From IMG/VR virus record IMGVR_UViG_3300025000_000994, positions 1 to 61,128 of that record: a stretch of DNA of 61,128 bases, one strand, 5' to 3'. Under the pieces are notes generated by a model that did not search any database, was not told the DNA's origin, and saw only the letters and a program-made list of their open reading frames with translations. A program made the translations under genes and the position numbers. This document shows, piece after piece, positions 14,967-37,633 of the stretch. Position 1 is the first letter of the stretch. Each line of letters opens with the position of its first letter. The DNA comes from a virus.

Positions 14967-14970
14967 GTTC

Positions 14971-15804: not shown

Positions 15805-15962
15805 GTTATCGCCTCCCGTTTTTATATTTCTCTTTTCGCTTTCACCGTCTACAGCACGTTCCTGTCGTGCATCGGTGCCCGGCTATGCAATTGTCAATGT
15901 ACAGCTTGTCCTATTTTGCAGACAACTTTTAAGCCCTCCGGAGAGGGTGAGTGTTTGCGTGG

Positions 15963-16712: not shown

Positions 16713-16726
16713 ATTTGTACCTCACA

Positions 16727-16755
16727 TTTCCATATTTCTACTTTTGTGATAATAT
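16727..16755 (+). promoter_or_regulatory. Promoter of the Cas2-like gene
   Basis: TTTCCA, 17-bp spacer, TAATAT (16750-16755) with a TG one base before it. It points away from the early operon toward the plus-strand gene at 16779. Confidence 0.45.
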
Positions 16756-16778
16756 TATGTCGAAAGGAAGGTGATAAA

Positions 16779-17069
16779 ATGCTTATAGTTACATACGACT
16801 TAGTTAATAATGCGTCCCTTGAAGATTACGAACGTGTTATTAATGGAATTAAGTCCAGCTACCCAAACGCTAAAAAACTTACTGAGTCCTGTTGGTTTAT
16901 CCCTAAACCGTTAAACCAAAGCTTTGTGCTGTCTGAGCTAGGCAAATTTGTAAAAAGCACGGATAGATTAATGGTAGCTGAAATTAAAACCTTTCCCTTG
17001 GGGAAGAACCTTTTAAGTGATGTAAGCCCTCTTCCGGGACTTACTCGGAAACCGTTGGGCTCTCTGTAA
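16779..17069 (+). CDS. Cas2-like/SinR-type ferredoxin-fold protein
   Basis: The ATG at 16779 follows AAGGAAGGTGATAAA. MLIVTYDLVNNASLEDYERV starts with the strand and Asp of Cas2-like folds; TESCWFIPKPLNQ and STDRLMVAEI follow in the expected order. Stand-alone Cas2-like (SinR) proteins occur in phages without CRISPR, and there is no array or Cas1 here. Its 3' end overlaps the converging gene by 29 bases. Function unknown. Confidence 0.55.
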   Translation: MLIVTYDLVNNASLEDYERVINGIKSSYPNAKKLTESCWFIPKPLNQSFVLSELGKFVKSTDRLMVAEIKTFPLGKNLLSDVSPLPGLTRKPLGSL

Positions 17070-17304
17070 TTTCTTCTGTGGGCGGGTTGGTGCTTGCTGA
17101 CCCGCAAACTCCTTTCCTTGACTCCACCATACTTCTTGGCACTACATCCAATTGCCCTAGTCTCTCTTTCAGCAGTTCAATAAAAGCAAGTGTTCTAGTG
17201 AAATCAAACTGCTCCTGAACCATTTCCTCTATTGTCTTATTAACAAGGTAGCTTACTTCTGCCTGCTGGATTGGTCTTAAACTGTCAAAGTATTCCTTGT
17301 TCAT
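17041..17304 (-). CDS. Hypothetical phage protein, 87 aa
   Basis: ATG at 17304 (MNKEYFDSLRPIQQAEVSYL) behind AAAGGAGG. Helical, with a polar Thr/Glu/Ser tail. Converges with and overlaps the Cas2-like gene. Function unknown. Confidence 0.6.
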   Translation of the reverse strand: MNKEYFDSLRPIQQAEVSYLVNKTIEEMVQEQFDFTRTLAFIELLKERLGQLDVVPRSMVESRKGVCGSASTNPPTEEITESPTVSE

Positions 17305-17324
17305 CCTTGTTACCTCCTTTCTTC

Positions 17325-17468
17325 CTATCCTCCGTATTGCTGTGTTAATATAACTACGATTCTGGAAATCTGCTCTGCAATTCTGCATTTTTCATCTGAT
17401 GCAGTTGCGCTGTCTTGAGCCTTTTGCAACTCTCTGATCTGCTCCTGTAATACTGATTGGTAATCCAT
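17325..17468 (-). CDS. Small helical protein, 47 aa
   Basis: MDYQSVLQEQIRELQKAQDS to LTQQYGG, with AAAGGAGG before the ATG. Probably one amphipathic or coiled helix. First of a two-gene set with 17041-17304. Confidence 0.6.
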   Translation of the reverse strand: MDYQSVLQEQIRELQKAQDSATASDEKCRIAEQISRIVVILTQQYGG

Positions 17469-17541
17469 TTGATATTCCTCCTTTCCTTTGATGATTATTC
17501 ATTAGCTTGTCCCTCCCTTACTGTAGAACATCAGTTTTGAA

Positions 17542-17570
17542 TTGTTAATATTTGTAGGATTTTATATAAT
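17542..17570 (+). promoter_or_regulatory. Strong promoter of the 39-aa gene
   Basis: TTGTTA, 17-bp spacer, TATAAT (17565-17570). Directed rightward toward 17630, against the early operon. Confidence 0.65.
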
Positions 17571-17629
17571 ACACATAGCCCTATCGTTTGGCTGTCATAT
17601 TGCACCTTATTGGCGAGGGAGGTGATAAT

Positions 17630-17749
17630 ATGGCAAAGACGAAATCATCTGTACGCGGTGTCCAGAAAAAGAAAATCGTTGTTGTTAAGGCTCATACCAA
17701 GAGCAACGGTATTCATGTCTCTGAACATAGGCGTTCAACTCCAAACTGA
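17630..17749 (+). CDS. Small basic protein in its own transcription unit, 39 aa
   Basis: MAKTKSSVRGVQKKKIVVVK to HRRSTPN. GGGAGGTGATAAT lies before the ATG, a good promoter about 60 bases upstream and an intrinsic terminator after the stop. With its own signals on the non-operon strand it behaves as a moron active in the lysogen. Very basic; a nucleic-acid or ribosome contact is possible. Confidence 0.6.
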   Translation: MAKTKSSVRGVQKKKIVVVKAHTKSNGIHVSEHRRSTPN

Positions 17750-17756
17750 TGGGCGG

Positions 17757-17788
17757 GGTAACTCACTAAAAGTGGGTTACCTTCTTTT
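17757..17788 (+). terminator. Intrinsic terminator of the 39-aa gene
   Basis: 10-bp stem GGTAACTCAC/GTGGGTTACC (one mismatch) with loop TAAAA, followed by TTCTTTT. Confidence 0.7.
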
Positions 17789-17878
17789 ATAGGGCTATAT
17801 GTAATTATCAAAGTTCGTTCCTCCTATTTAGGCAAATAAAATAAGGTAAATGAACATTAGTCTCTCTGGAGCATGGTG

Positions 17879-18580
17879 TTAGGCTGATTTTTTCAGCTTT
17901 TCAATTATATAAATCTGACCTTTAGGCGTGACTTTATAAGTTCTGTAAGTCTCGCTACCATATGGTGTGCTATATGTGCCTTGCCTCGTTTCAAACCATC
18001 CAGCATCAAAAGCTTTTTGATAGGGCTCATTCTTATCGCTCACAATTCCCCATTCTCTTAGCTTCTGCCATAAACGTTTTTCGCCGATGGCAACATTCTG
18101 CTTGCTTGCCAATTTTGCTACTTCACGGACTAACAAACTGTCGTTTGAAGCTATGCAGGTTTCGGCGAATAACACAAGAGGCTTCTGTTGTTCAAGTTGT
18201 TGAGCCTTATGCGTGTTCTCTGTCTGCAGATGTTCTTTTTCCTCTTCTGCTGCTACCAGCGCCAGCAATGCTTCTTTATAATTGGTAGGCAACTGCTTGT
18301 CCTGTTCCATTGCTAGTTCAATTAACTTTGCTCTGACAACTGCATCATACCTGGCAGCTAATTGCAGGACACCTTCTTTGGTGAGGGTGTAGCAAGGCAT
18401 TTCTTTATTCTGTTCCGTAGTGTATGAGGATAACGCAAATTTGCGTTCACCGGAAATTCCGCCTGCCTCCAGCTTTTCGGATTCATCCCTAATGTCTCTC
18501 ATAATATCCGCGTGACGTTTCCCTGTTACTTCTGCGATTTCCATTGATGTCATTTTGGTGATAATGGTTAGATTTTTCAT
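17879..18580 (-). CDS. Rha-family protein with KilAC-like C-terminus
   Basis: N-terminus of Rha type (TSMEIAEVTGKRHADIMRDI, PCYTLTKEGVLQLAARYDA); C-terminal ANT/KilAC module (SLLVREVAKLASKQNVAIGEKRLWQKLREWGI, KGQIYIIEKL). ATG at 18580 follows AGGAGG by 8. It is the first early gene after cro and is preceded by an operator copy at 18663-18674, so the CI/Cro pair probably regulates it. Probable antirepressor. Confidence 0.8.
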   Translation of the reverse strand: MKNLTIITKMTSMEIAEVTGKRHADIMRDIRDESEKLEAGGISGERKFALSSYTTEQNKEMPCYTLTKEGVLQLAARYDAVVRAKLIELAMEQDKQLPTNYKEALLALVAAEEEKEHLQTENTHKAQQLEQQKPLVLFAETCIASNDSLLVREVAKLASKQNVAIGEKRLWQKLREWGIVSDKNEPYQKAFDAGWFETRQGTYSTPYGSETYRTYKVTPKGQIYIIEKLKKSA

Positions 18581-18662
18581 TAGCTTGTCCTCCTGCATAA
18601 ATCATTTTAAAACCTTGGTATATTTCCGACTTTCACCGGATATACTTATACTGGGGAAGTGC

Positions 18663-19264: not shown

Positions 19265-20449
19265 ATGGCACGGCCTAAAAAACAGAACGACAAGCCATTA
19301 ACACGTAATCCTAATGGAATGGGCAACATTTATAAAAGACCTGATGGCAGGTATGAATGGAAGCAGATGGTTGATGGTGAGGTGCGGTACGAATCAGATA
19401 TAAATCTGTCTGAACTAAGAAGGAAAATAAAGAAACAAACAAACATAGGCATTAATAAGGATAAAACAAAATTATTTGAATGGATAGCCTACTGGCTTGA
19501 AAACTATGTTCAGCCTTATAAAAAACCTTCCACGTACAATAACTACAAATTCGCTTACGAAAAGTACATCAAAAAATATATGAGAAATGTCCAGCTAAGG
19601 CATGTTACAAAGATGGATGTTCAAAAAATGATAACAGACCTAATTAATGATAAGTATTCACCGTCATTAATAAAGAATGTTCGCAAGGCTTTAAGTGCTG
19701 CATTTATTTCAGCAAATGAGGAGGAACAGATCGTTGACTTCAACCCAACCAGAGACACTAAACTGCCCAAAGGCAGAACCCCTACCCGAAAAACTTTGAA
19801 ATTAGAGGAGCTAATTGCAGTTATTAATAAGTTTAAGACATCAAGGTGGTTATATGCTATCTTATTTATGCTTGCTACAGGATTGAGAAGGGGCGAACTA
19901 TTAGCCGTAAGATGGTCTGATATTGACTTTAAAGAAAAGCGTATCGGCATAGAAAACAATCAAACTCAATACGGGATTGACACGCCAAAAGACAATGAAT
20001 ACCACTATGTGCCGTTAACAGATCACGCCGTGGCCTATTTGTCTGGATGGAAAAACCAGCTTCAAAAGGAATACAACCCAGCCATATATCACAAAGTTGA
20101 TACTATTTTTGTATCAAAAAGTGGACAACCCTTACGACCTTCAAGTTTTAATAACACACTGGCAAAGCGCAAATTTGATTTTAAAGTAACGCCACACATG
20201 TTCCGGCATACCTTCGTATATCTCTCAAAGGGCAAAATAAGCCTGAGTGAATTGCAGGAAGCATTAGGACACGACCAGTCAACTACTACATTGGATATAT
20301 ACGGTCTTATGCTCGCTGATACTGTTGCTGTTGCTGATAAAATTGAAATAGCATACAAAGAATTGGATGAAGCTATGAAGGAAAATAAAAAGAAAAAGCA
20401 GGAAAGTAATGTTGTAGATTTCACACAAAGAAGATTAGCAAAACAATAA
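19265..20449 (+). CDS. int: Tyrosine integrase
   Basis: 394 residues with an arm-binding N-terminus (GMGNIYKRPDGRYEWK), a core-binding SAM-like domain and a catalytic domain. Active-site residues: R208 (TGLRRGEL), K242, H311 and R314 (HMFRHTF), H336 (LGHD), Y346 (LDIYG). GAGGAGG is inside the repressor 3' end, so the two are coupled. The attachment region follows at once. Confidence 0.93.
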   Translation: MARPKKQNDKPLTRNPNGMGNIYKRPDGRYEWKQMVDGEVRYESDINLSELRRKIKKQTNIGINKDKTKLFEWIAYWLENYVQPYKKPSTYNNYKFAYEKYIKKYMRNVQLRHVTKMDVQKMITDLINDKYSPSLIKNVRKALSAAFISANEEEQIVDFNPTRDTKLPKGRTPTRKTLKLEELIAVINKFKTSRWLYAILFMLATGLRRGELLAVRWSDIDFKEKRIGIENNQTQYGIDTPKDNEYHYVPLTDHAVAYLSGWKNQLQKEYNPAIYHKVDTIFVSKSGQPLRPSSFNNTLAKRKFDFKVTPHMFRHTFVYLSKGKISLSELQEALGHDQSTTTLDIYGLMLADTVAVADKIEIAYKELDEAMKENKKKKQESNVVDFTQRRLAKQ

Positions 20450-22846: not shown

Positions 22847-23044
22847 TCAAAACGAAGTTTTATTTGTCGGATTATTAAGCAGCCCGAATAATACGCCAAG
22901 CTGCAGCACCCCTGCAACAACATCACCAACCATACCAGTGTCTATACCATACTTTGCCCATATGCCAGTGATTTGTCCTATACTGATTATCTGTGCTACT
23001 ACTGCCCCCCAAAAAACTGGGCTTCTAAACCTATTCTGTGTCAT
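22847..23044 (-). CDS. phi-LC3-type holin
   Basis: 65 residues. SPVFWGAVVAQIISIG and VVAGVLQLGVLFGLLNNPT are the two hydrophobic parts typical of phi-LC3 holins. Overlaps the amidase gene by 4 bases. Expected to permeabilise the membrane and release the lysin. Confidence 0.8.
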   Translation of the reverse strand: MTQNRFRSPVFWGAVVAQIISIGQITGIWAKYGIDTGMVGDVVAGVLQLGVLFGLLNNPTNKTSF

Positions 23045-23592
23045 ATTAATTTTTCTCCCTTCAAATATTTATATATTCCATTTGCCAATCTTACTGCTAT
23101 TGAATTAAACTCATCATGAATCCATTCAGCCTGTTTCATTTCATCGTGGAAACTTACTTCTAAAATTGCTGATACCGCCAATGTCTGGTTTAATGCTCCC
23201 AGATCAGTACGCTTTCTTACTCCTACATCAGCGGTAGGCGTGAGGCTAGCAAGTTCATTATACAAGTATGTCGCAAGGATTTTACCCTTATCCGACACAT
23301 ACAGTGCCGAGCAACCTTTTGCGTATCCTCCGGCATCGCTGTGCAATTCGATGTGATAGCCTTTGCCACCATTAGCCTTGATAAACTTGTTTGAGAGTGC
23401 TATACTTGCCTTTAAATTGCCACTGTCTGTCCCTGTATTCTGCTTGGGTACTAAGTACACGTTTAACCGCTTATCCACGCTCAGAATGGCGTGTAGGCTT
23501 TTGGCTATAGTGTACATGTGGTCTTGCTCTGTATCACCCAGTTTACATTTGTTGTTCCTTTGCTGTGAGTAGGCTATTACTAGATTTATCAC
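23041..23592 (-). CDS. N-acetylmuramoyl-L-alanine amidase (endolysin)
   Basis: Amidase_3 features: QDHMYTIAKSLHAIL, SIALSNKFIKANGGKGYHIELHSDAGG (zinc His and the HSDAGG loop) and SAILEVSFHDE. No separate wall-binding domain. GTG at 23592 (VINLVIAYSQQ) overlaps the XhlA-like stop and is favoured over a longer start at 23628. Confidence 0.85.
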   Translation of the reverse strand: MINLVIAYSQQRNNKCKLGDTEQDHMYTIAKSLHAILSVDKRLNVYLVPKQNTGTDSGNLKASIALSNKFIKANGGKGYHIELHSDAGGYAKGCSALYVSDKGKILATYLYNELASLTPTADVGVRKRTDLGALNQTLAVSAILEVSFHDEMKQAEWIHDEFNSIAVRLANGIYKYLKGEKLI

Positions 23593-23885
23593 TTTGCCAC
23601 CTCTTTCATTTCGCTGATTTTGTGCCATGCTGATTTCAACGATTCCTCTGTTTTTGTTACCCTGTCACACAGTTCATAGTGCCGTAATTCGCCCGTTTCC
23701 TGCTTGCGCTTCAGGTCATCGACACCGGACTTTATATATCCGATGTCACTCATTAATGTGCCATTGTTTTTACTGTTGTCAGCAACCTCTTTTTTTGTGC
23801 CACGCTGATAGCCCATGTAGCCGAACAAAATGCTGCATATTGTCCCGACTATACCAATTAAAACAACTATGTTAACATTCTCCAT
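23589..23885 (-). CDS. XhlA-like holin partner
   Basis: 98 residues: N-terminal membrane segment (IVVLIGIVGTICSILFGYMG) then a charged coiled coil (IKSGVDDLKRKQETGELRH, VTKTEESLKSAW). Looks like haemolysin XhlA-type proteins that act with holins. First gene of the lysis set. Confidence 0.65.
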   Translation of the reverse strand: MENVNIVVLIGIVGTICSILFGYMGYQRGTKKEVADNSKNNGTLMSDIGYIKSGVDDLKRKQETGELRHYELCDRVTKTEESLKSAWHKISEMKEVAK

Positions 23886-24015: not shown

Positions 24016-27000
24016 TTAAAACAGTTCCTTCTTTGCGTATTCGTACGCATCATCGGCAAGTTTTTTCAAGGCTTTTGCCCTTGCTTCATTATTCGATTTC
24101 CCGTCTATCCTTTTATTGAAGTTATCGCTGTAATACTTACCAGAAATCTTTTGCCATTCTCGTTTTTGTTCTGCGGTAAGTTTTACCTTATTACCTTCTC
24201 TTGTGAAATCATCTGGCGCAAGCTTTGGGAATACTGTCTTATCATCTGTAGCCTTGTAAACATTGTATATGCGTTTCATGGTTACATTGGCCTTTTCTGT
24301 ATCACCAAAATATCCCGGACTAATAAACTGTTCAAATGCTCTTGCCAATGTGCCACGCCCTTGTGACTGCTTCTGTTCTTGCCCTAGTGTGTCAATCTTC
24401 TTAGGCAATGTCATACTTAACCCAGGGATCCTTGCTAACTGTTTATTTACTGTTTCACCTATTCCAGTATCTGCAGATGTATCTCTTACATATGGATCGA
24501 TTGTTTTTGCTACTTGTGAGCCGAGAGTAGGGGTAATAATGTTTGCTGTATTGAGCGCACTGTTTACAACTCCTGAGATTGGATTATAAGTATTCAAAAA
24601 TCTTGTTAAACTCTGCATCATACTTTGATTGAAAAACGTATTGCCGTACCCTTGTAAGGCTGCATTTAACTGTTCAGAAAAGTTATCCTTATTCATTCCG
24701 GAATAGTACGCGTCTGCTCCTGCCGCCAATACAGAACCTACCGGCTGCGCCCAATCAAAAGTATATGACTTTCCATCCACTACAAAGGAATATGAGTTAA
24801 TTCCCATCAATCTTTCAAGTGCCGCAACATCTTTGTCACTGTCTGTCTTACCTTTAATAATGCCTTTGCTTGCGGCTGCATACCCTAATAATGCAAGTCC
24901 TGTACCCGTCAAGCCTCTTGCAATATTATCCACAAAGTATTTTTGATTGAATACCGTTTTACCAGCTTTAGAGTATGCACCGTGTCCGATAGCTTTCGCA
25001 AGCCCGGCGGGAGAATATTCGAGTAACTTGTTGAGGATATTAGCAGGAGTCTTTGAGAACGGTATAATACCATTCATAATAAATCCCCACGCATCTTTTA
25101 ACCCTTGCGGAGCTTTAGCAGGTGGCGTTTTCAATGCTTTAAACACTTGTGCAATTCCGCTATCGTTTTGGAATACTCTTTCAAGTGCATAGTCGTTCGC
25201 CATATCCATCATTTCCTGTGTGACTTCTTTAGTTTTCCCCAGTTTTAACAGGTCACTGATACGCTCGTCATATGCAGCTTGGTAGAATGGCCTATCACCC
25301 AATTGAAGCATCTGCCCTACTAACTTGTCAGCTTTGTTCAATGCCCTACCTAAGAGTTTGTTATTGTCAAATACGTCCCTTCTCGGCATTTCAAGCATAC
25401 CAACTGTCGGTGATGTGTCAACTCCTGCTTTAATATCCTTTAATGCTTCACCTAATCCCTCCCCGCCTCCTTTCAATTGTGCTTTTAACCTTCCCGCACT
25501 TGGCAATGCTGTTGTTCTGTCACTCTTGCGAATAGCGGAGGTTACCTTGTCCACCATTGCACCAGGAAGATCCTTAATAGTTTCAGCGATATTCATAATG
25601 ACGTTGCCTGTAGGATTTCTAATTAACAGTGTTTTGGGATTCAATAAATATGATACTCTCTGTAGTCCTCTGAACTTATCAACCAATGTCGGAGGTATTT
25701 TATTGCTCATTATCTGCATAACCTTGTACCATGCTTCTTTAGCTTCCCTTGAACCCGGAATAGCACTTTTATACTTATCCATATAATCAGCAATAGCCTT
25801 AATATCGCCATCTGTCAAATCAGGCACATTGTATTTCCTTTTTACCTGCGACAATATCTTGTCGTAGTCTGCTTCCTTACCTTCCTTCTTTGCCTTGTCA
25901 AAAATTTCTCCCGCTTCTTTTTTAACCTTGTCCATCAATTTAGGATTTGTCTTTTTAATCCCATCCTCAATTTTGTCAACAACCTTTTGTGTAGAAGCGA
26001 TGACGCCCTCTTTTGTCCGCGTATACTTTGCAAATGCCTGTACGCCTCGTCCCTGTGTTCTTCCTGCTTGTGATACACCCTTTGCTGTTTTGCGGATATT
26101 GGCAATGTCCGTATCCGACAAATCAGTTTTATTGGACAGGTCATGTAACAATTCCATACCTACATTAACATCATCTTGGTTATATTGTGTCCTTGACAAG
26201 TCCTGTATGCGCTTCAATTCACCTTCCGCATCTGCATTTATTTTTGTTCTTGCGGTTTCAAGCTGTTGTTTTTCGGTAAGCGGGTCATAACGAAAATCAT
26301 CTTCATCGAGCAAGTTCTTGACTTCCTGTGGAATAGCATCCGTGTTCTTTAAAGTGTTAGAATAAACCTTGCTTAACCCTTCCAGTTTCTTTTTAGCCGC
26401 AAACAACTGCAAATTAATCTTTAACAGCTTATGTCCATCCTTCTCCACACTCTTTGCATTTTCCAGTTCTACAACCATTTTACCCAATTCATCCTCTGTA
26501 TCCGGCAACCTTGCCGTAACCTGTTCAACATACTTTTTTTGTGCGGTTGTCTTAGGGGAATAGTCGGTTACATCAGCTGTCTTAGCAAGCGTTTCCACAT
26601 TCGGAGTCGTGACATCCTGTACGCCATTCTGAACCACTTCATTTGCCGTAGGTGTGTTTACCTTCATAGATTGCGCTTCTGTCTCAGCAGTTCCATCAGC
26701 CGCTGCAATAGTCCTTCTAATGGTTTGCTCTTCGGGTACTGGTTTAGGTTGAACAGCTTTCTTTTTATGGTTTTCTTCCGCTTGCCTAGCCACTTCTTGT
26801 ACTCGCTGTTTGGCTATTTCTTCATTACTAAGTTTTGGCGTGTTTACTTGCTCTGCTTCTATTTTTGGCTGCACGGCTTGCGTAGGTTGTGCAATAGGCT
26901 GTTCCGCTTTAATATCATCCGCTACCCCTGCTACCTGCTTAACTGTATTCTTCGCAAGCATAGCCTGTTGTCTCTCGCCTACCAACTTGACAAATTCTGT

Positions 27001-27639
27001 AGAAGGCTTAGAAGCCTTGCCCATTACGCCAGCTCTCGACAAATCATCTACTATACCACCGCCGATATACGTTGTAGGGTCAAGCCCTGCACTTATCAAC
27101 ATATCAATTGCTTGACTTGCAATTGCACCGCCTTTACCGGTTTCAGCAAGGCTACGCAATGCCTTGTCATATGCAGGAGGAAGAATATCGTTCCTCAGTG
27201 ACCTTTCAGACCAATCAAGCGGTTTGCCTTCAACCGCATTGCCGATATTGCTCACCGTCTGCATCATAGCTTGCGGCACGGCGTTAGCTATTCTGATTGC
27301 TGTGCCAGCACCATAATTGACAATATCCTTGCCAACCTTTGCAAGCCCTGTATCTTCTTTGTAAACAGGGATAAGGTTCTGACCAACGACATTATACCGC
27401 GATGTGTCAATAGGCGTTTGTGTAGAAGGTTTCTGTACGGTTGGCTTCTGCGTTACAAGTTTAGTAGGAAGCGTTGAAGCCTTCTTTAAATTATCTGATA
27501 AGGCATAACTCATCGTCGGCTTGCTACCTTCATCAAGGCGCGATTCCTTAAATTCTTCATTTTTTTTGAGTGGTTTTTTCTCGGTCTTATTCCATGGTCT
27601 TGTTGATGTTGTTTGCTTTTTATTACTCCACTGTCTCAT
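24016..27639 (-). CDS. Large internal virion / ejection protein
   Basis: 1207 residues with an unstructured, Thr/Pro/Gln-rich N-terminus, then repeated helical regions (KYVEQVTARLPDTEDEL, KTAKGVSQAGRTQGRGVQ). The C-terminal part (RNPTGNVIMNIAETI, QLGDRPFYQAAYDERISDLL, VFQNDSGIAQVFKAL, GFIMNGIIPFSKTPANIL) resembles large polyvalent-protein-type domains of podovirus ejection proteins. There are membrane-like stretches (GLTGTGLALLGYAAA). No tape-measure repeats. Likely injected with the DNA. Confidence 0.65.
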   Translation of the reverse strand: MRQWSNKKQTTSTRPWNKTEKKPLKKNEEFKESRLDEGSKPTMSYALSDNLKKASTLPTKLVTQKPTVQKPSTQTPIDTSRYNVVGQNLIPVYKEDTGLAKVGKDIVNYGAGTAIRIANAVPQAMMQTVSNIGNAVEGKPLDWSERSLRNDILPPAYDKALRSLAETGKGGAIASQAIDMLISAGLDPTTYIGGGIVDDLSRAGVMGKASKPSTEFVKLVGERQQAMLAKNTVKQVAGVADDIKAEQPIAQPTQAVQPKIEAEQVNTPKLSNEEIAKQRVQEVARQAEENHKKKAVQPKPVPEEQTIRRTIAAADGTAETEAQSMKVNTPTANEVVQNGVQDVTTPNVETLAKTADVTDYSPKTTAQKKYVEQVTARLPDTEDELGKMVVELENAKSVEKDGHKLLKINLQLFAAKKKLEGLSKVYSNTLKNTDAIPQEVKNLLDEDDFRYDPLTEKQQLETARTKINADAEGELKRIQDLSRTQYNQDDVNVGMELLHDLSNKTDLSDTDIANIRKTAKGVSQAGRTQGRGVQAFAKYTRTKEGVIASTQKVVDKIEDGIKKTNPKLMDKVKKEAGEIFDKAKKEGKEADYDKILSQVKRKYNVPDLTDGDIKAIADYMDKYKSAIPGSREAKEAWYKVMQIMSNKIPPTLVDKFRGLQRVSYLLNPKTLLIRNPTGNVIMNIAETIKDLPGAMVDKVTSAIRKSDRTTALPSAGRLKAQLKGGGEGLGEALKDIKAGVDTSPTVGMLEMPRRDVFDNNKLLGRALNKADKLVGQMLQLGDRPFYQAAYDERISDLLKLGKTKEVTQEMMDMANDYALERVFQNDSGIAQVFKALKTPPAKAPQGLKDAWGFIMNGIIPFSKTPANILNKLLEYSPAGLAKAIGHGAYSKAGKTVFNQKYFVDNIARGLTGTGLALLGYAAASKGIIKGKTDSDKDVAALERLMGINSYSFVVDGKSYTFDWAQPVGSVLAAGADAYYSGMNKDNFSEQLNAALQGYGNTFFNQSMMQSLTRFLNTYNPISGVVNSALNTANIITPTLGSQVAKTIDPYVRDTSADTGIGETVNKQLARIPGLSMTLPKKIDTLGQEQKQSQGRGTLARAFEQFISPGYFGDTEKANVTMKRIYNVYKATDDKTVFPKLAPDDFTREGNKVKLTAEQKREWQKISGKYYSDNFNKRIDGKSNNEARAKALKKLADDAYEYAKKELF

Positions 27640-27650: not shown

Positions 27651-29237
27651 CTATTTCGGAAGTCCTAATAAATCAGCAAGGGCATCCTTTTCATCCGGTT
27701 CAAGATTCTGCATATCAACATAATTGAAAATATCGTCAACCGTGTATCTAGGTTCATCGCCAATCTTTTCTTTCATCATGGAAACAGCACGGTCATAGAA
27801 TGGTTTTACCTTTTCAGGTATCGCCGGAGTATCCACTCCATAACTCTTTTGCGTTTTCATGGAACTCGACAACTCTGTCAATAGCTTGTTGTATAATTTG
27901 TCACCGATTAAGGCGATATTATCTTTTGAATGAGCCATCAGCCAATTATAGGCTTTGAGCGGGTCATTTGCGTATGCTCCATTGCCACCGCCAAAGTATA
28001 TATCCTTCAATTGGTAATACTGTGATACTTGTTGCTCTGTACCTAATTTTGATGGGTCTGCTGTGCTTTCTTCTTTTAATGCCGCAACCTTTACTTCTTT
28101 TTGATATTGAGCGTTAATAATTGCAAGCTGATTTGCAAGAGATTGTTTCTGTTCTGCTAACCTTTCAGCCGCCGCCTCTTTTGCTTCTCTTGCCTCTTTG
28201 CTCAATGTTCCTGCTGGAACGCCTAATGTAATAGAAGAAGCATTATCCACGTATCCTAACTCGCTTGTTCTATCCCACGCATCAGATATTTTAGTTCTCT
28301 CGACTTCAACCTTTGCCTCGGCATCCCTTACGCTGTCGCGCTGTGCGTTGTAGCGGTTCGTGTAGGCATCCTGCCACTTTTTATACTGGTTATTATCCAT
28401 CGCCATAACAGCATCAAGCACCTTCGCGTATCTTTCGCCTTCGTCTTGATACCTGTTGTATTGAGTTTCATCAATCCCCATGAGCATATCAACTTGCGAC
28501 ATCAACATGTTGCCTTCGTCTTGAAAGGCTTGGCGTGCAATCTGTTGATACTGTGGCAATAAATCAGCTACGCCTTGCTGTACTTGGTTCTCTGTAACGG
28601 TAGAGTTCAATATTCCTCTACTGTTCATGGTTTCCATGACATTTCGCGTAAGTTCCTTTGAAGCAAGTTGAAACTGTTTGTCATTGGCAGGATCATAATT
28701 AAACTGTCTCGCCAATATGTTCTTGACTAATGCTTCAATTTGAGGCGCATACTGCGAATTGTACGGTTGAGAAGCCCATTGTTGATATGCATCTAAAGCG
28801 GATTGTTCCTGCTCACTGTATGGATTCTGATACACATACGGTGAAAGCAACTGGTCAATCTGTTCCTGTGAGCCATAATACGTATTATTCTGATACCCGG
28901 CTGGTGCATTGCCTTCATAATTGGTCAATCCGGCCGTATTGATAGGCATACCGTTTATAGTCACACCGTTTGTAGCATCCCATCCAACTTGTACCCCTGC
29001 CTGTGTAGCTGCATCACGCAAGCCTATCATCCCTGTGTTTGCCTGAACTGTAGGTGTGGTTGGTGCGGCTTGTATAGCTTGCGTTGTAGGTGTAGCAGGC
29101 GCAACAGGCGCTTGCGTTATTGGCGTGGATGGCGTTGCGGTCTGCGTGTTAAATATCCCGCTTATTCTCGCTTCATAATCGCCTGAGTTCTCACCCGTTT
29201 GGCGGGGATTGGCGGAGAATATTTCATCTAAGGTCAT
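27651..29237 (-). CDS. Second internal virion protein
   Basis: 528 residues. A Pro/Thr/Gln-Ala low-complexity segment (about 30-65), a small domain resembling stalk/CuAO-N modules (GVQVGWDATNGVTINGMPI), then long helices (LARQFNYDPANDKQFQLASK, ERTKISDAWDRTSELGYVDN). It sits directly before the large ejection protein, and the two probably form the internal ejection set. Confidence 0.55.
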   Translation of the reverse strand: MTLDEIFSANPRQTGENSGDYEARISGIFNTQTATPSTPITQAPVAPATPTTQAIQAAPTTPTVQANTGMIGLRDAATQAGVQVGWDATNGVTINGMPINTAGLTNYEGNAPAGYQNNTYYGSQEQIDQLLSPYVYQNPYSEQEQSALDAYQQWASQPYNSQYAPQIEALVKNILARQFNYDPANDKQFQLASKELTRNVMETMNSRGILNSTVTENQVQQGVADLLPQYQQIARQAFQDEGNMLMSQVDMLMGIDETQYNRYQDEGERYAKVLDAVMAMDNNQYKKWQDAYTNRYNAQRDSVRDAEAKVEVERTKISDAWDRTSELGYVDNASSITLGVPAGTLSKEAREAKEAAAERLAEQKQSLANQLAIINAQYQKEVKVAALKEESTADPSKLGTEQQVSQYYQLKDIYFGGGNGAYANDPLKAYNWLMAHSKDNIALIGDKLYNKLLTELSSSMKTQKSYGVDTPAIPEKVKPFYDRAVSMMKEKIGDEPRYTVDDIFNYVDMQNLEPDEKDALADLLGLPK

Positions 29238-29263
29238 GTAATCAACTCCCTATTGTATAATTT

Positions 29264-29297
29264 TACATAAAAAAAGAACACCCCATTGGCGTTCTTT
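29264..29297 (-). terminator. Terminator of the signal-peptide moron
   Basis: Minus strand: 9-bp stem AAGAACGCC/GGTGTTCTT (one G-U) followed by a run of T. It lies in the virion operon, between the moron and the internal virion gene. Confidence 0.7.
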
Positions 29298-29319: not shown

Positions 29320-29760
29320 TTATTTTAGATTTTTTACAGCTTCATTGATCATTTTCTGTACATCTGACTTTTTGATATATCCATTGTTATTTAACCATTG
29401 CTCTGTAGCAATTCTGCTGTTTCCAATATATCCCTCAGTTGTTGTTAGCCAAGTGTTGATTATGCCGTTATAGTTCATTATTTGCAGTATACCGGAATCT
29501 GTATCTTTTAAAGTCCCAAGCGCAACCCTGCTAAAATCTTCTGCTTCCTTATTGGCGTAGTTGTATAAGACTATTGTCCCACCGATATTTGCACCTTCAC
29601 CGGATTCTGCACCTATTTTCACATTTAATTCATCATCAGCATTGAATAATCTTATGACTTCGCCTTTAACATCATCATATATTTCTGCGGGTGAAGCAAA
29701 AACAGAAACACTAAATGCCAGGATAAATCCCACAACAACACCTAAAAATATTTTCTTCAT
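29320..29760 (-). CDS. Secreted moron protein sharing the virion appendage domain
   Basis: 146 residues. A clear Sec signal peptide (MKKIFLGVVVGFILAFSVSV then FASPAE). The mature part matches the neighbouring virion protein: LNVKIGAESGEGANIGGTIV against LNAKIGVESGAGVNTGGTMI, and GYIGNSRIATEQW against GYIANQTIATQPW. It has its own promoter (29786-29814), AAAGGAG and terminator, so it can be expressed in the lysogen. It may bind the surface or receptor to exclude other phages; untested. Confidence 0.7.
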   Translation of the reverse strand: MKKIFLGVVVGFILAFSVSVFASPAEIYDDVKGEVIRLFNADDELNVKIGAESGEGANIGGTIVLYNYANKEAEDFSRVALGTLKDTDSGILQIMNYNGIINTWLTTTEGYIGNSRIATEQWLNNNGYIKKSDVQKMINEAVKNLK

Positions 29761-29785
29761 AAATAATCAACTCCTTTGGAATAAT

Positions 29786-29814
29786 ATTGTACCATCTTTA
29801 ATAAAATTATACAA
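29786..29814 (-). promoter_or_regulatory. Moron promoter inside the virion operon
   Basis: Minus strand TTGTAT (29809-29814), 17-bp spacer, TACAAT (29786-29791). The -35 overlaps the stop of the upstream virion gene. Confidence 0.65.
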
Positions 29815-30649
29815 TACTTGTAATTATTCCGCCTAATACTGAAACAGTTTTCCCATCTGCCGTTGTGAAAGAACCACTTGCCCCGGAAATTATTGGTTGA
29901 AACTTACCATCTGCCCACGGCTGTGTTGCTATCGTCTGATTTGCGATATAGCCTCCACTTGACGATATGTACGATGATGATAAGTCACCCCAAAGCAATA
30001 TACTTGACACAACATCGCCACCGCCCGTACCATCATCAGCTTTCATTATTAAGCGTCCAACATTGTCATTTGTGTTCAGATTTATGATTCCCGAATGGTT
30101 TGAGCCAAGTATTCCAATCTCAACTCTTTGATAATTTATAGGATCTGCTCCACTCGGAACATCGTCATATAATATCATCGTTCCACCAGTGTTTACGCCA
30201 GCACCACTTTCAACACCGATTTTAGCGTTTAAGTTGCCACCAATATCGAATATTTTAAGCACACCGCCATATGTGTCCTTATAGGCATGAAGAAGAACCT
30301 TTGCGAGATATGTTATAAGTAATTGTCCATCAAGCACCTGTGTTCCGTTTTCGTCCAAGTACACGCTCTTTTTTCCGTTTGGGTCATAAATCTCGAACAC
30401 AAATTTAGCTTGAACCGAGTCATACCCCATCTGCAGCCTTAATACGGGTACAGTCTGTTTATCACTCATTTTTAGCACCGGCCCGTCAATCTGCGTTTCC
30501 CCGTTGGCACTCTGTATACTGCAATACTCCGTATATAGCCTCTTCACATTGTCATGGTCTAAGTTTGCCATAAGCCAATTTAATGTTCTCTTCAACATTG
30601 CTATAGTATCCTCTACCGATGGACCATCTCTTAATTCCATTATAGACAT
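29807..30649 (-). CDS. Virion appendage protein
   Basis: 280 residues. N-terminal helical part (EDTIAMLKRTLNWLMANLDH), a middle strand region (VLRLQMGYDSVQAKFVFEIY) and a C-terminal repeat-like domain shared with the secreted moron. Such layered strand domains occur in tail fibres and appendages. Receptor contact is inferred. Confidence 0.6.
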   Translation of the reverse strand: MSIMELRDGPSVEDTIAMLKRTLNWLMANLDHDNVKRLYTEYCSIQSANGETQIDGPVLKMSDKQTVPVLRLQMGYDSVQAKFVFEIYDPNGKKSVYLDENGTQVLDGQLLITYLAKVLLHAYKDTYGGVLKIFDIGGNLNAKIGVESGAGVNTGGTMILYDDVPSGADPINYQRVEIGILGSNHSGIINLNTNDNVGRLIMKADDGTGGGDVVSSILLWGDLSSSYISSSGGYIANQTIATQPWADGKFQPIISGASGSFTTADGKTVSVLGGIITSIV

Positions 30650-30652: not shown

Positions 30653-32017
30653 TCACATCTCCAATCTCAAATCGTCACCGATATAGTAAATTGTTGCCGG
30701 GCCTGTTCCCGCAAATTTCAGCCTATACCATTCGCAACTCTCTATTTCATCCGTGTACACATCAACCCTTTGTTCCGTCGCTGAGGCTGTGAAGGTATGG
30801 ACTAACACAAAGTCGTTTCCGTCAACTGTTTTGCTCACAGATAAGGTCATGGTTGAACCTATTGGTAAGTCAAACACTATTGGAATACTCCCTAATGTCT
30901 TTGTTTTAAGGTTGTTCCGGTTTAATGCTCCTGTGGTATGATACCATGATATGGCTGTTCCATTGTCCGTCAATCCGCCTTCCATATCATATATAACCCC
31001 TGTAGGGCTTACGCCGTAACAACTCTCGCCAATGGTTACAAATTGGCTTATAGCAAGGCTGTGAACGTTCCATATTTTGAATTCTGTATCGTATTCAAGG
31101 ACTATGTTATTCTCTGTCACAGCTCCGTAAGGGATTGCCCAATAGATGTACTTGCCGTTCTTTCCAGCGCAGATTTTAGCCTTATGCGCCAAGGCTATAC
31201 CATCAATAAAACTCTTTACTGCATGGCTCATTTTGACAGGCTTGCTACCTGTATAGGCTTTAATCCATCCGTAGTCCATGAAGTATAAAACTCCACCATT
31301 TTCAATAACAGACCTGTCAGATATACACCCATCATCTGATAAATCTACAAGTTGATAATTGCCTGGATATGAGCCATAAAGTTCGTGCATGGATTGGCCT
31401 GTCCAGATTACGATGTGGTCGTTAAATTCCGTTATAGCTGCCCCATCACCTTTAGCATTGGTGATTGTTATACTTCCTGCATCATCTGCTGTTGTCCAGT
31501 CGGTTATGAGGTTTAAGGCTGAGAATTTCAATTCCTTTCCTTTTAAAGCGTATACTCTGCCTTTATGAACAGCATATAGTTTTGTTGCAGGTGCAGCGGT
31601 CAAACTTACTGCATTTGTTCCATCCCATGAATATGTATCCGTGCCGTTCACAAGAATGGTGTATAAGGTTGTTCCTGTGGCAAACTCAACTATTTTACCT
31701 GTTGCGCTTGTCAATGTATCTTTAACCGTCTGCCATGCCGAACCATCCCACCGTTTCCATACAGTTCCATCCTGTACATGAGGATATTGGTTATTCCTCT
31801 GTCCTAATGCATTAGGCGTGGTTATGGCAGTAAAGGCATCATCGGTCCCTGGGCGAACAGCAAGGGCCGGATATAACCGGCTCGATACATTTCTGGAATC
31901 CCTTGCCTCACCTTCTTTGATATTGAAAGGTGTGCCATACGTGTTAATCCCTCCGCCTAAATAGATAGGCGCAGAAGGTTGAACTTTATATCTCGGAGCT
32001 CTTAAAATTGGTTTCAT
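30653..32017 (-). CDS. P22 gp10-like tail hub / DNA stabilisation protein
   Basis: 454 residues with blade-like beta repeats (YSWDGTNAVSLTAAPATKLY, HKGRVYALKG, NDHIVIWTGQSMHELYG, LYFMDYGWIKAYTGSKP). This propeller-like pattern is typical of gp10/packaged-DNA stabilisation proteins of short-tailed phages. Directly follows the connector gene. Confidence 0.6.
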   Translation of the reverse strand: MKPILRAPRYKVQPSAPIYLGGGINTYGTPFNIKEGEARDSRNVSSRLYPALAVRPGTDDAFTAITTPNALGQRNNQYPHVQDGTVWKRWDGSAWQTVKDTLTSATGKIVEFATGTTLYTILVNGTDTYSWDGTNAVSLTAAPATKLYAVHKGRVYALKGKELKFSALNLITDWTTADDAGSITITNAKGDGAAITEFNDHIVIWTGQSMHELYGSYPGNYQLVDLSDDGCISDRSVIENGGVLYFMDYGWIKAYTGSKPVKMSHAVKSFIDGIALAHKAKICAGKNGKYIYWAIPYGAVTENNIVLEYDTEFKIWNVHSLAISQFVTIGESCYGVSPTGVIYDMEGGLTDNGTAISWYHTTGALNRNNLKTKTLGSIPIVFDLPIGSTMTLSVSKTVDGNDFVLVHTFTASATEQRVDVYTDEIESCEWYRLKFAGTGPATIYYIGDDLRLEM

Positions 32018-32018
32018 A

Positions 32019-32639
32019 TTATCTGCTCCAATCCTTTAATTTCTTTGAGCGTGGGTTGTTAAGATATTTAGCAAGAAGAATCTGTCCCATGAGTTCATTA
32101 TATTTCTGCGTGTAGTTATTCGCTGTGGTGGTGTCTGGATTGCTCCCCGATCCTGCTATTTCAGCGATTGCGCCATATACTAAAATCCTGTGCCAATCCT
32201 CTCTCAACTCCGGTGTTTCGCCCGTGTTGGATGAATTCATCAATGCAGGGCGTTTTTTGAATATTAACCTTATGTTCCATCCGGTAGTATCAGGCATGGG
32301 GTATAAGCCAATTAAGCCGTTGAAGGCATCAAAGTATCTGTATCCGCTCATGTTCTCATTTAAGTCTGCGAGAGTGTATTCCTGAAACTCTGAATTTGAA
32401 GTTATTACAGCATCTTTTGTCAAACCGACATATTCAAGAAACTCAACTTCGCAATTTGTGGGCAAAGAATAAGACCACTGATCAGCAACTGTGTTAAACT
32501 CATATATGTCTTTAATCTGTAGTTCTCTGAATATTTCTCTCTGTTCATCGTTCAGAATGCTTGTTATCTCGGCATCTGTCCATGTCGCGGCTTTCGGGTA
32601 ATACCGCTTTATTTTGGTTAATATTTCAGCGAGTGTCAT
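32019..32639 (-). CDS. Head-to-tail connector / tail adaptor
   Basis: 206 residues. MTLAEILTKIKRYYPKAATW and ITSILNDEQREIF are typical of gp4/gp6-type adaptors, with IRLIFKKRPALMNSSNTGETPEL and a helical end. Expected to bind below the portal. Confidence 0.65.
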   Translation of the reverse strand: MTLAEILTKIKRYYPKAATWTDAEITSILNDEQREIFRELQIKDIYEFNTVADQWSYSLPTNCEVEFLEYVGLTKDAVITSNSEFQEYTLADLNENMSGYRYFDAFNGLIGLYPMPDTTGWNIRLIFKKRPALMNSSNTGETPELREDWHRILVYGAIAEIAGSGSNPDTTTANNYTQKYNELMGQILLAKYLNNPRSKKLKDWSR

Positions 32640-33011: not shown

Positions 33012-34622
33012 TTATGCATTCGGTATTCTCAATACTCTGTATCCAGTGCCGCCAGAATCATTTGCACCGATTGACACGTCAAGTCCAGCATATTTAATTG
33101 CAGGTACACTAACCTTTCCAGAACCTGTCTGCCGCGTTAATCGCAAATCTCCTGTAGCTGTTTCAACATTAATATTCCATTTACTACTTGAGTCTCCAGC
33201 TAGTAACCCGATATGGGTATTAGAACCGCATATCATCATTGGCTCCGTTGCTAATGCTGCTAGTGCCGCTAATATTCCCGCATCTGAAGCCGCAAAAACA
33301 GTACTCTTCAATTTAAACTTGTTTTGATAGCCTAAACTTGTAGACCATGTTAATACAGCATCAGTTTCAATAACAGGATCTTTTGTTCCGTTTCCTTTGT
33401 CGATATACAGCACAGTGTTTTCCCGTGATGGATAAGTATAGCTTTCTGTACCACGGGCAATAATGGAATAGGCTAGTGTTTTGTTTGAAATGCCTACGTG
33501 CATAAAGAAGTTTCCTGCCGCGCCGCTGCTAATTAAATCATTTCTTCCTCGTAATTCTATTCCTGTACCCGTGCTTGTATTATCTAAAACATGAAAACGT
33601 GTTTGCGTAAAGAAATTATTATCCGCATCGTCTACAGTTATGCCGTTCCCATTATGAATACCACCTTGAATACTTTCAAAATAATTGTATGATGTATTAC
33701 CTTTTTTACCCGCAACAGATGTTCCGCCAGTCAAAAATAGCACAGCGCCATCTTTAATTCTTTGTTTACCTGTAATCATAGAAAATACGTTTTTTTGCGA
33801 ATCCGATGCTTCTGTAATTGCTCCCGTGGTGTCTACGCCGACATATAAACCCGCTACGCCAAATTCATTAAAATATAAAGAGTCAAATCTTGAATTATTC
33901 ACACTTTTTATTACTAGTCCATAATCTGCTAAATCATTTGCTATAAAAGATATATTGCTAATTTGGCATGAATCAATACGTGTAAGTGATGTTGCGTGTG
34001 GGCATAACTCCATCATTGTTCCATTCGCTGCACCAATCCAAGTAAATCTAGTAGCAGCAATATTTCCAGATGCATCATGTATGTCACCCATACCAAATCC
34101 TATTAAATGTATGTTTGAATTATCAATAACAACCTTCGAAGCGAGTCCATAATTAGCAGGAGGAAACACGATACGTGCTCCGTTTACAGATTTAGCATAT
34201 TGAATAATTGCGTTGATTGCCTCTGAATCGTCTGTACCATCACCTTTTACAGGAACTAATGGAGCAGGCGGAGCGAAAACATTAATATATACTTGTGCTG
34301 TAGCTGCCGTATGCGAAGTAAAACTATTTACGGTTATAGTTGAACCGCCCGTGATGGTTACATTGTTACCTAAAAATGTTATGCCTGTAGTATTGGTCAA
34401 GGCAGTTATTTTATAAGTCTTACCACTTACAAAGTTAATATCTGAAACGCCTGCCGCTATAGCCGCATCAACCGCCGCCTGTACTGCCAAAGTGTCGTCC
34501 GTTACTCCGTCGCCTACTGCGCCATAGGCAGATACCCATATCTGGCCTACTTTGTTTATAAAAAAATTGCTTATTTGTGATTGTGCCGTATAAATACTTA
34601 AGAGTTCAGCTGGAGTTGGCAT
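33012..34622 (-). CDS. Tailspike with pectate-lyase-like beta-helix
   Basis: 536 residues. AYGAVGDGVTDDTLAVQAAV and a second GDGTDDSEAINAIIQYAKS open right-handed beta-helix domains of the pectate lyase_3 type. The following strand turns (NNFFTQTRFHVLDNTSTG, RGRNDLISSGAAGNFFMHVG) fit the helix. Likely binds and cuts a surface polysaccharide of the host. Confidence 0.82.
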   Translation of the reverse strand: MPTPAELLSIYTAQSQISNFFINKVGQIWVSAYGAVGDGVTDDTLAVQAAVDAAIAAGVSDINFVSGKTYKITALTNTTGITFLGNNVTITGGSTITVNSFTSHTAATAQVYINVFAPPAPLVPVKGDGTDDSEAINAIIQYAKSVNGARIVFPPANYGLASKVVIDNSNIHLIGFGMGDIHDASGNIAATRFTWIGAANGTMMELCPHATSLTRIDSCQISNISFIANDLADYGLVIKSVNNSRFDSLYFNEFGVAGLYVGVDTTGAITEASDSQKNVFSMITGKQRIKDGAVLFLTGGTSVAGKKGNTSYNYFESIQGGIHNGNGITVDDADNNFFTQTRFHVLDNTSTGTGIELRGRNDLISSGAAGNFFMHVGISNKTLAYSIIARGTESYTYPSRENTVLYIDKGNGTKDPVIETDAVLTWSTSLGYQNKFKLKSTVFAASDAGILAALAALATEPMMICGSNTHIGLLAGDSSSKWNINVETATGDLRLTRQTGSGKVSVPAIKYAGLDVSIGANDSGGTGYRVLRIPNA

Positions 34623-34640: not shown

Positions 34641-34673
34641 TAAAAATAGGACCTACCTTATAGATAAGTCCTG
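34641..34673 (-). terminator. Possible terminator before the tailspike gene
   Basis: Minus strand AGGACTTA/TAAGGTAGGTCCT hairpin with a bulge, followed by ATTTTTA. Imperfect; could instead attenuate tailspike expression. Confidence 0.35.
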
Positions 34674-36181: not shown

Positions 36182-36691
36182 TCATACGTACTCCATCAAA
36201 ACCGTTATCGTGCCCAAGGCATAAGATGTCGCTGCACCAGAAGCCAGTTTCAAACATAGTGCGTCACCGGCTGCGAATGTGGCTGCTGCCGTGGTTACTG
36301 CTGCTTTGCTGACAGGTGTGTTGGCTGCGCTTGTGAGGTCAAAAGCTGCCGCAAGCAAAACGTCACCAGCACCCGGAGCCTCACCTGTGGTTAACTTTTC
36401 AATGGTCAATGTTCCTGCCTGACCCGCTACGGTTACATGGCGTTCATAGGCGGAAATTATCTTACAGGCTGCTGACGCTATAAAAAAGGTTTTGGCTACA
36501 TCTGCGGCTGCTACATCGTGGAATGTTACCATGAAGCGTGAGCCGGGTACGGCCTTGCCTGTGGCTATGCCTGCAAGAGTGTTTAGTTCTGCACCGGTAG
36601 GGGTTAAAGCTGTGCCTTTCTGGTATAGCGTTCCGTCTGTTCCGATGGCATCTACGCCATTGGTTTCTATAAGGTCTACAAAATTAGGCAT
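36182..36691 (-). CDS. Virion protein with Ala/Thr-rich barrel, 169 aa
   Basis: Opens MPNFVDLIETNGVDAIGTDG. Strands such as RFMVTFHDVAAADVAKTFFI, GTLTIEKLTTGEAPGAGDVL. Probably capsid-associated; no family named. Confidence 0.55.
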   Translation of the reverse strand: MPNFVDLIETNGVDAIGTDGTLYQKGTALTPTGAELNTLAGIATGKAVPGSRFMVTFHDVAAADVAKTFFIASAACKIISAYERHVTVAGQAGTLTIEKLTTGEAPGAGDVLLAAAFDLTSAANTPVSKAAVTTAAATFAAGDALCLKLASGAATSYALGTITVLMEYV

Positions 36692-36742: not shown

Positions 36743-37633
36743 TTAAACTCCTGCGTTGCTTACAAATCCGAACCCGTCATGGATGATCGCACTCTTATAT
36801 CTCTCATAAGCGTTGAAGTACCACACAAGAGTATCTTTTGCATCAAACTCCGAATGAGTTTTTAAGCCCATTCTAATGAGCATGATTACGGAAGCAATGT
36901 TCTCGTCAATCAAGTGCCACGGTGCAGCAGACAAATACTTGCTGAGAATTACCTTCAAACTGGGAACGGTGTTCTTAGTGTTGGATGATTCCTGTGCTTT
37001 CAAGGTGGATTCAAGGACTGACTTAATCAGTGCACCTTTATCCTTGTGAGCTAAGATAGCCGTTGCAGAGGTGTCGAACACATCGCCATTGTGCTTTTTG
37101 ATTGCGTTGAACATGTTGTCAGCAGCAATGACGTTGTCGGGCGTAATCAGCCCGGATGTAGCAAGGTTGTCGTTTACTGCGGAAGTTCCTTTAAGCGGGT
37201 GGTCATTAGCGGCATAAGCTTTACCGTCTGCGCCTGTGTTTGTAAACACGCCATTCCACTGTGCGGCTACTGCTTTTTCTCTCGCCGTTATCATGGTGCT
37301 GTACAGGTCGTCAACCATAGGACCGTTGACTACGTTGTACTGATCGTCCTCATAGGTTTCAAGATCGATAGAAAAACCGTTTGTAACTTTTACAGGTTTA
37401 ACAGTAGTCTCATAGGCATCCTGTAATTTGCCGTATTCGATTGACCCGCCAGGTGCAGTTTCCTTTGCGGCAGGAAGGTTACCCAATGTCTCAAAGGTTT
37501 CCTCCATTTTAGTTGTATTCATTACTGTGGCGTAATCTCTCCAAGATTCCTTTTTAGGCTTTTCAAGATTCTTCTTCCACACTTCCATGTGGCCTACATA
37601 CATTTCCTTGTTCAGATCTGTTGAATTAATCAT
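36743..37633 (-). CDS. Major capsid protein (Mu gpT-like, HK97 fold)
   Basis: 296 residues. The order of features (TFETLGNLPAAKETAPGGSI, YETTVKPVKVTNGFSIDLET, VNGPMVDDLYSTMITAREKA, DNVIAADNMFNAIKKHNGDV, APWHLIDENIASVIMLIRMG) matches gpT-type major head subunits. Follows scaffold and decoration genes. Confidence 0.75.
   Translation of the reverse strand: MINSTDLNKEMYVGHMEVWKKNLEKPKKESWRDYATVMNTTKMEETFETLGNLPAAKETAPGGSIEYGKLQDAYETTVKPVKVTNGFSIDLETYEDDQYNVVNGPMVDDLYSTMITAREKAVAAQWNGVFTNTGADGKAYAANDHPLKGTSAVNDNLATSGLITPDNVIAADNMFNAIKKHNGDVFDTSATAILAHKDKGALIKSVLESTLKAQESSNTKNTVPSLKVILSKYLSAAPWHLIDENIASVIMLIRMGLKTHSEFDAKDTLVWYFNAYERYKSAIIHDGFGFVSNAGV

What the first reader, a model, noticed from the sequence alone, without database searches (positions are those of the whole stretch)
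29320..29760. Self-contained moron: secreted protein sharing a virion domain
The gene has its own promoter (TTGTAT-17-TACAAT), ribosome site and intrinsic terminator in the middle of the virion operon. The product carries a Sec signal peptide, and its mature part is homologous to the C-terminal domain of the adjacent virion appendage protein. A lysogen could thus export a copy of a virion binding domain, which might mask a receptor or block adsorption. I know of no described system with this exact layout.
Basis: partly seen in the sequence, partly recalled or inferred. Interest (0 to 1): 0.8.

Follow-up and report, generated by a model that had tools for sequence, protein, structure and literature searches.

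The report
Secreted copy of phage fibre domain
A phage genome carries, right after the gene for one of its presumed fibres, a separate gene for an exported protein built from the outer half of that same fibre, which may let an infected bacterium block further phages of the same kind.

Summary
The gene at 29320-29760 (-) encodes 146 aa with a Sec type-I signal (no lipobox, no Cys). Its mature part is homologous to the distal half (residues 123-245) of the adjacent fibre-like protein P0002 (41% over 69 aa, E 1e-13; score 156 against at most 73 in 2000 shuffles), but not to P0002's last 35 residues. The split is old: synonymous sites look saturated. The gene is AT-rich, with a moderate promoter-like site and a hairpin terminator; expression in a lysogen is unproven. 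AlphaFold models were unusable (pLDDT 32).

New evidence: one relative (IMG/VR, 47 kb; best block 99.5% identical DNA) has a fibre with the same anchor domain and a different distal half. Directly beside it, on the opposite strand, lies a gene for an unrelated Sec-exported protein with a perfect TTGACA-18-TATAAT promoter. Receptor-binding genes with their own, mutually non-homologous exported partners are the layout of T5 oad/llp and BF23 hrs/llp, where the partner blocks the receptor.

Best reading (0.4): a fibre-paired superinfection-exclusion (receptor-interference) moron. Two genomes, no experiment, host unknown. New variant of a known kind.

The parts
29320..29760 (-). P0001, 146-aa exported protein: Sec signal 1-22 (by eye), mature domain homologous to P0002 123-245, then a short helical tail (predicted by eye) with no P0002 counterpart
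29695..29760 (-). signal peptide codons 1-22, predicted cut A22|S23
   Evidence: read from the sequence
29786..29814 (-). promoter-like site TTGTAT-17-TACAAT with extended -10 TGG; -35 overlaps the end of P0002
   Evidence: not listed by the consensus scan
29771..29777 (-). ribosome-binding site AAAGGAG
   Evidence: read
29273..29297 (-). intrinsic terminator hairpin followed by a T run
29807..30649 (-). P0002, 280-aa fibre-like virion protein: N-terminal anchor domain (about 21-106) shared with the relative's fibre; distal half (123-245) shared with P0001; last 35 aa resemble hypothetical proteins of Pseudoalteromonas phages (E 0.02 at best)
30653..32017 (-). tail-tube (nozzle-like) protein upstream, by position and a weak PHROG match to internal virion protein; 3 nt from P0002
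27651..29237 (-). presumed internal virion protein directly downstream of the cassette

Best explanation
P0001 is a moron paired with the fibre gene P0002: a soluble, Sec-exported copy of the fibre's distal half. It most likely acts by receptor interference. The lysogen (or, late in infection, the infected cell) exports P0001, which occupies or alters the surface structure that the P0002 fibre uses, so that phages with the same fibre fail to attach, and progeny are not lost on debris. Shown here: the gene, its signal, its homology to the fibre's distal half, and the pairing of the same kind of fibre with another exported protein in a relative. Inferred: that P0002 is a receptor-binding fibre, that the shared domain is the binding part, expression in the lysogen, and the block itself.
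For: Homology P0001-P0002. Synonymous sites saturated while protein identity persists: identity by codon position 0.66/0.66/0.37, 12 of 28 identical residues use the same codon against 9.6 expected, so the exported copy was kept under protein-level constraint, not freshly broken off. The shared part is the half of the fibre that varies between phages: P0002 and the relative's P0004 agree over 82 aa of the anchor (48%, E 1e-22) and show no significant match beyond. In the relative G967 the fibre gene (L053 730-1659 +) is followed after 6 nt by P0003 (L053 1666-2064 -), 132 aa, signal MKKSFILGFLLAISLLNAVPVSA|ND by eye, promoter TTGACA-18-TATAAT 12 of 12, GC 30.6% against 41.2% for L053, and no significant similarity to P0001 or P0004. 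The two fibre genes stand at different places in the two virion operons, yet each has an exported-protein gene next to it. My crude screen passed 4 of 163 ORFs in the three pieces of G967 (which overlap slightly), of which P0003 is the one small, cleaved-signal candidate by eye. Precedent: llp lies beside oad in T5, and the BF23 Llp has no homology to T5 Llp but does the same job (PMC4728585, passages); T5 Llp is periplasmic and shuts the receptor from inside (PMC9586334, passages); expression of the virion protein pIII makes cells immune to filamentous phages (PMC11082904, passages).
Against: Only two genomes; the pairing could be chance, since ends of tail operons often carry morons (recalled). 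P0003 is not homologous to its fibre, so fibre-copying is seen once. P0001 lacks the fibre's last 35 residues, which could be the real tip. No lipobox and no Cys: unlike Llp and Cor it has no visible means to stay at the surface. Promoter is moderate and its -35 is coding; no transcript data. The structure of the domain is unknown (pLDDT 32). G967 lacks P0001, and no homologue of P0001 turned up elsewhere, so there is no independent test of conservation.
Confidence: 0.4

Rival explanations
1. Lysogenic-conversion factor of another kind: the exported fibre domain binds a surface glycan and serves the host (adhesion, envelope change), with no role in excluding phages.
For: Same anatomy. Exported proteins of prophages often act on the host's surface (recalled). 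P0003 in the relative is unrelated to its fibre, so the common theme may be just 'exported moron at this spot'.
Against: Homology to the neighbouring fibre's distal half is not expected of a general conversion factor; position beside the fibre gene in both phages although the fibre genes sit at different places.
Confidence: 0.2
2. The shared domain is a generic beta-rich shaft repeat, not a binding head; P0001 is exported, but the likeness to P0002 reflects a common building block, and its action cannot be read from it.
For: The aligned segment is full of Gly-rich repeat-like motifs; the last 35 aa of P0002 (possible tip) are missing from P0001. Unusable models predict mostly strands.
Against: This half is the one that differs between the two phages' fibres, and no copy of it was found in other proteins: none in 50,697 phage records (E up to 1), none in 380 Negativicutes-class genomes.
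Confidence: 0.2
3. Virion or late-lysis component: the hydrophobic N-terminus is an uncleaved membrane anchor and P0001 is made only late, for instance as a small ejected or membrane-placed protein.
For: Lies inside the virion operon on the same strand, 46 nt after P0002 and 82 nt before the next gene, so late read-through would express it.
Against: KK n-region, short core and V-F-A cut site fit a cleaved signal; own terminator-like and promoter-like sites; absent from the relative's virion genes.
Confidence: 0.1
4. Relic: a second fibre copy, truncated and drifting, whose upstream part happens to read as a signal peptide.
For: No relative of P0001 known; the domain lacks a 26-residue stretch and the tip found in P0002; P0001 has no counterpart in G967.
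Against: Frame open over 146 codons; first and second codon positions 66% identical against 37% at the third, which drift would not keep; a complete signal, RBS and terminator around it.
Confidence: 0.1

Closest known systems
T5 oad/llp and BF23 hrs/llp host-recognition modules (PMC4728585 passages; PMC9586334 passages)
   Same: Small exported protein encoded beside a receptor-binding gene; partners in related phages are not homologous to each other although the modules correspond; expected role superinfection exclusion.
   Different: Llp is a lipoprotein made early in lytic infection and is not described as homologous to its receptor-binding protein in the passages seen; P0001 has no lipobox and copies the fibre's distal half; P0002 is not shown to bind a receptor.
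Cor proteins of N15, phi80 and T1-like phages (mentioned in passages of PMC9586334; reference list of PMC11436027; otherwise recalled)
   Same: Small exported exclusion factor; tail-gene neighbourhood and expression in lysogens for N15/phi80 are recalled.
   Different: Lipoproteins acting on FhuA; no fibre-derived domain (recalled).
Filamentous-phage pIII superinfection immunity (PMC11082904 passages)
   Same: A phage receptor-binding virion protein made in the cell blocks entry of further phages.
   Different: There the virion protein itself does it; here a separate gene carries only the distal domain, with its own expression signals.
Soluble truncated Env of endogenous retroviruses: Refrex-1, FeLIX, Suppressyn (PMC11019853 passages)
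   Same: A secreted, truncated copy of the viral attachment protein encoded by an integrated virus blocks the receptor.
   Different: Animal retroviruses; works as an analogy only.
Ltp of Streptococcus thermophilus phage TP-J34 (PMC3952083 passages)
   Same: Prophage moron, exported, excludes superinfecting phages.
   Different: Lipoprotein of a widespread repeat family whose proposed target is the tape measure protein; not a copy of a fibre.

Membership tests
Moron (definition recalled) | own promoter and terminator | tested here: inconclusive
   terminator good; promoter-like site moderate, with a coding -35
Moron (definition recalled) | base composition unlike the surrounding genes | tested here: met
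   34.9% GC against 41.0% window, 41.4% P0002, 44.0% next gene
Moron (definition recalled) | absent between the same genes in a relative | tested here: inconclusive
   G967 has 15 nt between its positional counterparts of the flanking genes and no P0001; but P0002 is missing there too, and those flanking proteins show no significant similarity between the phages
Moron (definition recalled) | expressed from the repressed prophage | not testable with these tools
   needs RNA data
Llp/Cor-type receptor-blocking lipoproteins | signal peptide for export | tested here: met
   by eye and crude screen; no SignalP available
Llp/Cor-type receptor-blocking lipoproteins | lipobox with Cys | tested here: not met
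   P0001 has no Cys at all
Llp/Cor-type receptor-blocking lipoproteins | gene beside the receptor-binding gene | tested here: inconclusive
   beside P0002 (46 nt), which is fibre-like but not proven to bind a receptor
Llp/Cor-type receptor-blocking lipoproteins | blocks infection by phages using the same receptor | not testable with these tools
   needs plating and adsorption tests
Described anti-phage defence proteins (PADLOC-DB) | match to a model | tested here: not met
   0 families for P0001, P0002 and P0003 at E up to 1
Phage tail fibre or receptor-binding families (Pfam, PHROGs, NCBIfam) | P0001 or P0002 matches a described family | tested here: not met
   Pfam 0; PHROGs best E 0.22 and 0.31; NCBIfam best 0.041 for P0001, under its cut-off, and 0 for P0002

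The most novel reading that the evidence does not exclude
Receptor interference by a dedicated, secreted copy of the virion's own attachment domain: the phage counterpart of soluble retroviral Env decoys. In this phage group each fibre variant travels with its own exported exclusion protein, and here that protein was made by copying the fibre's distal half.
Probability: 0.3. Interest if true: 0.8.

Novelty: new variant of a known kind. Interest (0 to 1): 0.55.

Why it matters
If true, it would show that a tailed phage can build an exclusion factor by exporting a piece of its own fibre, which predicts specificity directly: the protein should block just those phages that share the fibre's distal half. 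It would also give a simple search rule (signal-peptide genes beside fibre genes, tested for homology to the fibre's variable end) to find matched exclusion factors and, through them, unknown receptors in undescribed hosts.

Tried and rejected
Structure: two AlphaFold jobs with two-row alignments gave mean pLDDT 32.0 and 32.1; no fold search was run on them.

Relatives of P0001: none by the search for related loci in IMG/VR, none in 50,697 phage records or 72,556 plasmid records at E up to 1. The profile of the shared domain matched 0 of 380 genomes of the class of G002 (positive control: only its own source) and 1 of 348 of the phylum of G001: E 2.8e-4, inside a long Gly-rich repeat protein (3.2 kb of it seen), which I take as spurious. 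The anchor profile matched 1 of 217, E 0.0056 in a 31-codon frame, also taken as spurious; neither was used further. P0002 matched 0 of 8 genomes and 1 of 6 genomes or records (that one is G967). P0002 in phages: 3 records, only residues 246-280, best E 0.02. Other virion proteins as bait: 0 of 380, 0 of 247, 0 of 28. These pattern and genome searches are not exhaustive.

Leader duplication: GGAGTTGATTA occurs in the window only in the leaders of P0001 and of the next gene, which suggested an inserted cassette. Over 276 leader pairs this pair scores best, but only by 25 to 24, so I do not use it. A perfect 15-bp inverted repeat flanks the gene (29251-29265 and 29802-29816); one arm overlaps P0002's stop; no invertase or operator link found (one search gives no excess of the motif).

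Host: not settled. The methylase of the left part is 71% identical to one in an Anaerosolibacter MAG and 65-66% to Sporomusa, which is weak because methylases move.

A fecal phage record with a distant match to the downstream protein (32%) showed no P0001-like or fibre gene directly before that match on reading its ORFs.

Literature: in the open-licence PMC library; some returned no paper. I found no description of an exported copy of a tail-fibre domain, but subscription journals are mostly not held, and most listed papers were seen as listings only.

Full report
What is there. The ORF at 29320-29760 (-) has 146 codons, follows the fibre-like gene P0002 (29807-30649) by 46 nt and precedes the gene 27651-29237 by 82 nt. 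It starts MKKIFLGVVVGFILAFSVSVFASPAE, a typical Sec signal with a V-F-A cut site (my reading; ranks its N-terminal hydrophobicity third of 61 hand-picked genes). It has no cysteine, so it is not a lipoprotein. Upstream lies TTGTAT-17-TACAAT with an extended -10; downstream is a 10-pair hairpin with a T run. Both signals are modest as statistics: 23 minus-strand sites in 61 kb score at least as well as the promoter, its -35 is also the end of P0002, and terminator-like sites are not enriched in the region as a whole (17 against 16.1). The gene's GC is 34.9% against 41.0% for the window.

The homology. BLASTP gives 41% over 69 residues, E 1e-13. A local alignment of the mature part runs from P0002 residue 123 to 245, including a second block GYI.N..IAT..W after a 26-residue gap; score 156, against mean 34.5 and maximum 73 in 2000 shuffles. 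The last 35 residues of P0002 are not in P0001. In 67 aligned codons identity is 0.66, 0.66 and 0.37 at positions 1, 2 and 3; chance for position 3 is 0.29 with sd 0.05, and 12 of 28 identical residues use the same codon against 9.6 expected if saturated. The split is therefore old and the protein has been kept.

The surroundings. The minus-strand genes from 43.6 to 22.8 kb are a virion-to-lysis operon: terminase-like 42011-43651, which matches annotated phage terminases; capsid-like 36743-37633, one weak match to an annotated major capsid protein; tail spike with pectate-lyase-like and endosialidase N-terminal matches 33012-34622, and SU10 adaptor 32019-32639; then 30653-32017, P0002, P0001, 27651-29237, 24016-27639, an Amidase_3 protein at 23041-23628 and a holin-like protein at 22847-23044 under its Pfam cut-off. 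Neither P0001 nor P0002 matches a described family.

The relative. A scan with the protein of 24016-27639 found one IMG/VR contig (L051, record G967, 47,216 bases, 76% identical in that protein). Its ends overlap by 32 nt, so it is probably circular and complete. It shares DNA with the window: 99.5% over 4,723 bp at 52185-56907, 85% over 2,551 bp in the large internal protein, 85-88% in the tail spike region. It encodes a serine recombinase-type protein. It has no P0001. It does have a P0002-type gene: P0004, L053 730-1659 (+), 48% identical to P0002 over 82 residues of the N-terminal anchor (E 1e-22), with no significant match in the distal half. Six bases after P0004's stop, on the other strand, is P0003 (L053 1666-2064), 132 aa, beginning MKKSFILGFLLAISLLNAVPVSAND, again a Sec signal by eye. 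P0003 shows no significant similarity to P0001 (E 0.42, in the signal only) or to P0004 (E 0.12), has 30.6% GC, and carries a 12-of-12 promoter TTGACA-18-TATAAT; no terminator was found by the scan there. In G967 the fibre gene stands after the tail spike; in the window it stands after 30653-32017. Between the positional counterparts of the window's flanking genes G967 has 15 nt, though those two proteins themselves show no significant similarity between the phages. Thus the fibre and an exported-protein gene are neighbours in both phages although the fibre gene has changed place.

What it means. Two related temperate phages each pair an anchor-conserved, tip-variable fibre with a different exported protein. 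This is the layout described for T5 and BF23: llp lies beside the receptor-binding gene, the two Llp proteins are not homologous, and both block their cognate receptor (PMC4728585, passages). T5 Llp acts from the periplasm (PMC9586334, passages). The special point here is that the exported protein is itself a copy of the fibre's variable half. The simplest way for such a copy to help a lysogen is receptor interference, as described for pIII in filamentous phages (PMC11082904, passages) and for secreted truncated Env of endogenous retroviruses (PMC11019853, passages). I put this at 0.4. Steps shown: gene, signal (by eye), homology, age, pairing in two genomes. Steps inferred: expression in the lysogen, export, receptor binding, exclusion.

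Limits. Two genomes cannot show that the pairing is more than chance. The fibre-copy trait is seen once. Structure prediction failed. The host is unknown (one search gives only methylase hits in Anaerosolibacter and Sporomusa), so it is not known whether export leads to a periplasm or to the outside. The window record is a virus record, with early-gene modules at both ends that resemble each other, so lysogeny of this exact genome is inferred from integrase and repressor-like genes.

Noticed in passing
1-18600 and 46000-61128: Two early-gene modules resemble each other: 11 self-matches of 40-423 bp at 73-100% identity, including 3949-4371 with 50022-50444 at 92%. With the integrase at 19265-20449 between them, the record may hold the junction of two prophages in tandem rather than one phage.
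   Followed up: partly
29251-29265 and 29802-29816: A perfect 15-bp inverted repeat flanks the gene; one arm overlaps the end of P0002. Origin unknown.
   Followed up: partly
L053 1666-2064 (-): P0003 in the relative phage G967: an unrelated exported-protein gene with a perfect sigma-70 consensus promoter and 30.6% GC, next to the fibre gene.
   Followed up: yes
52185-56907: 99.5% DNA identity over 4,723 bp with G967, while several virion proteins of the two phages show no significant similarity: strong mosaicism and recent exchange.
   Followed up: partly
34648-34672: An 11-pair terminator-like hairpin lies just before the tail spike gene start, inside the virion operon.
   Followed up: no
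36182-36691: 74% DNA identity over 329 bp to a gene of G967 in the capsid neighbourhood although the two capsid regions otherwise give no DNA match.
   Followed up: no
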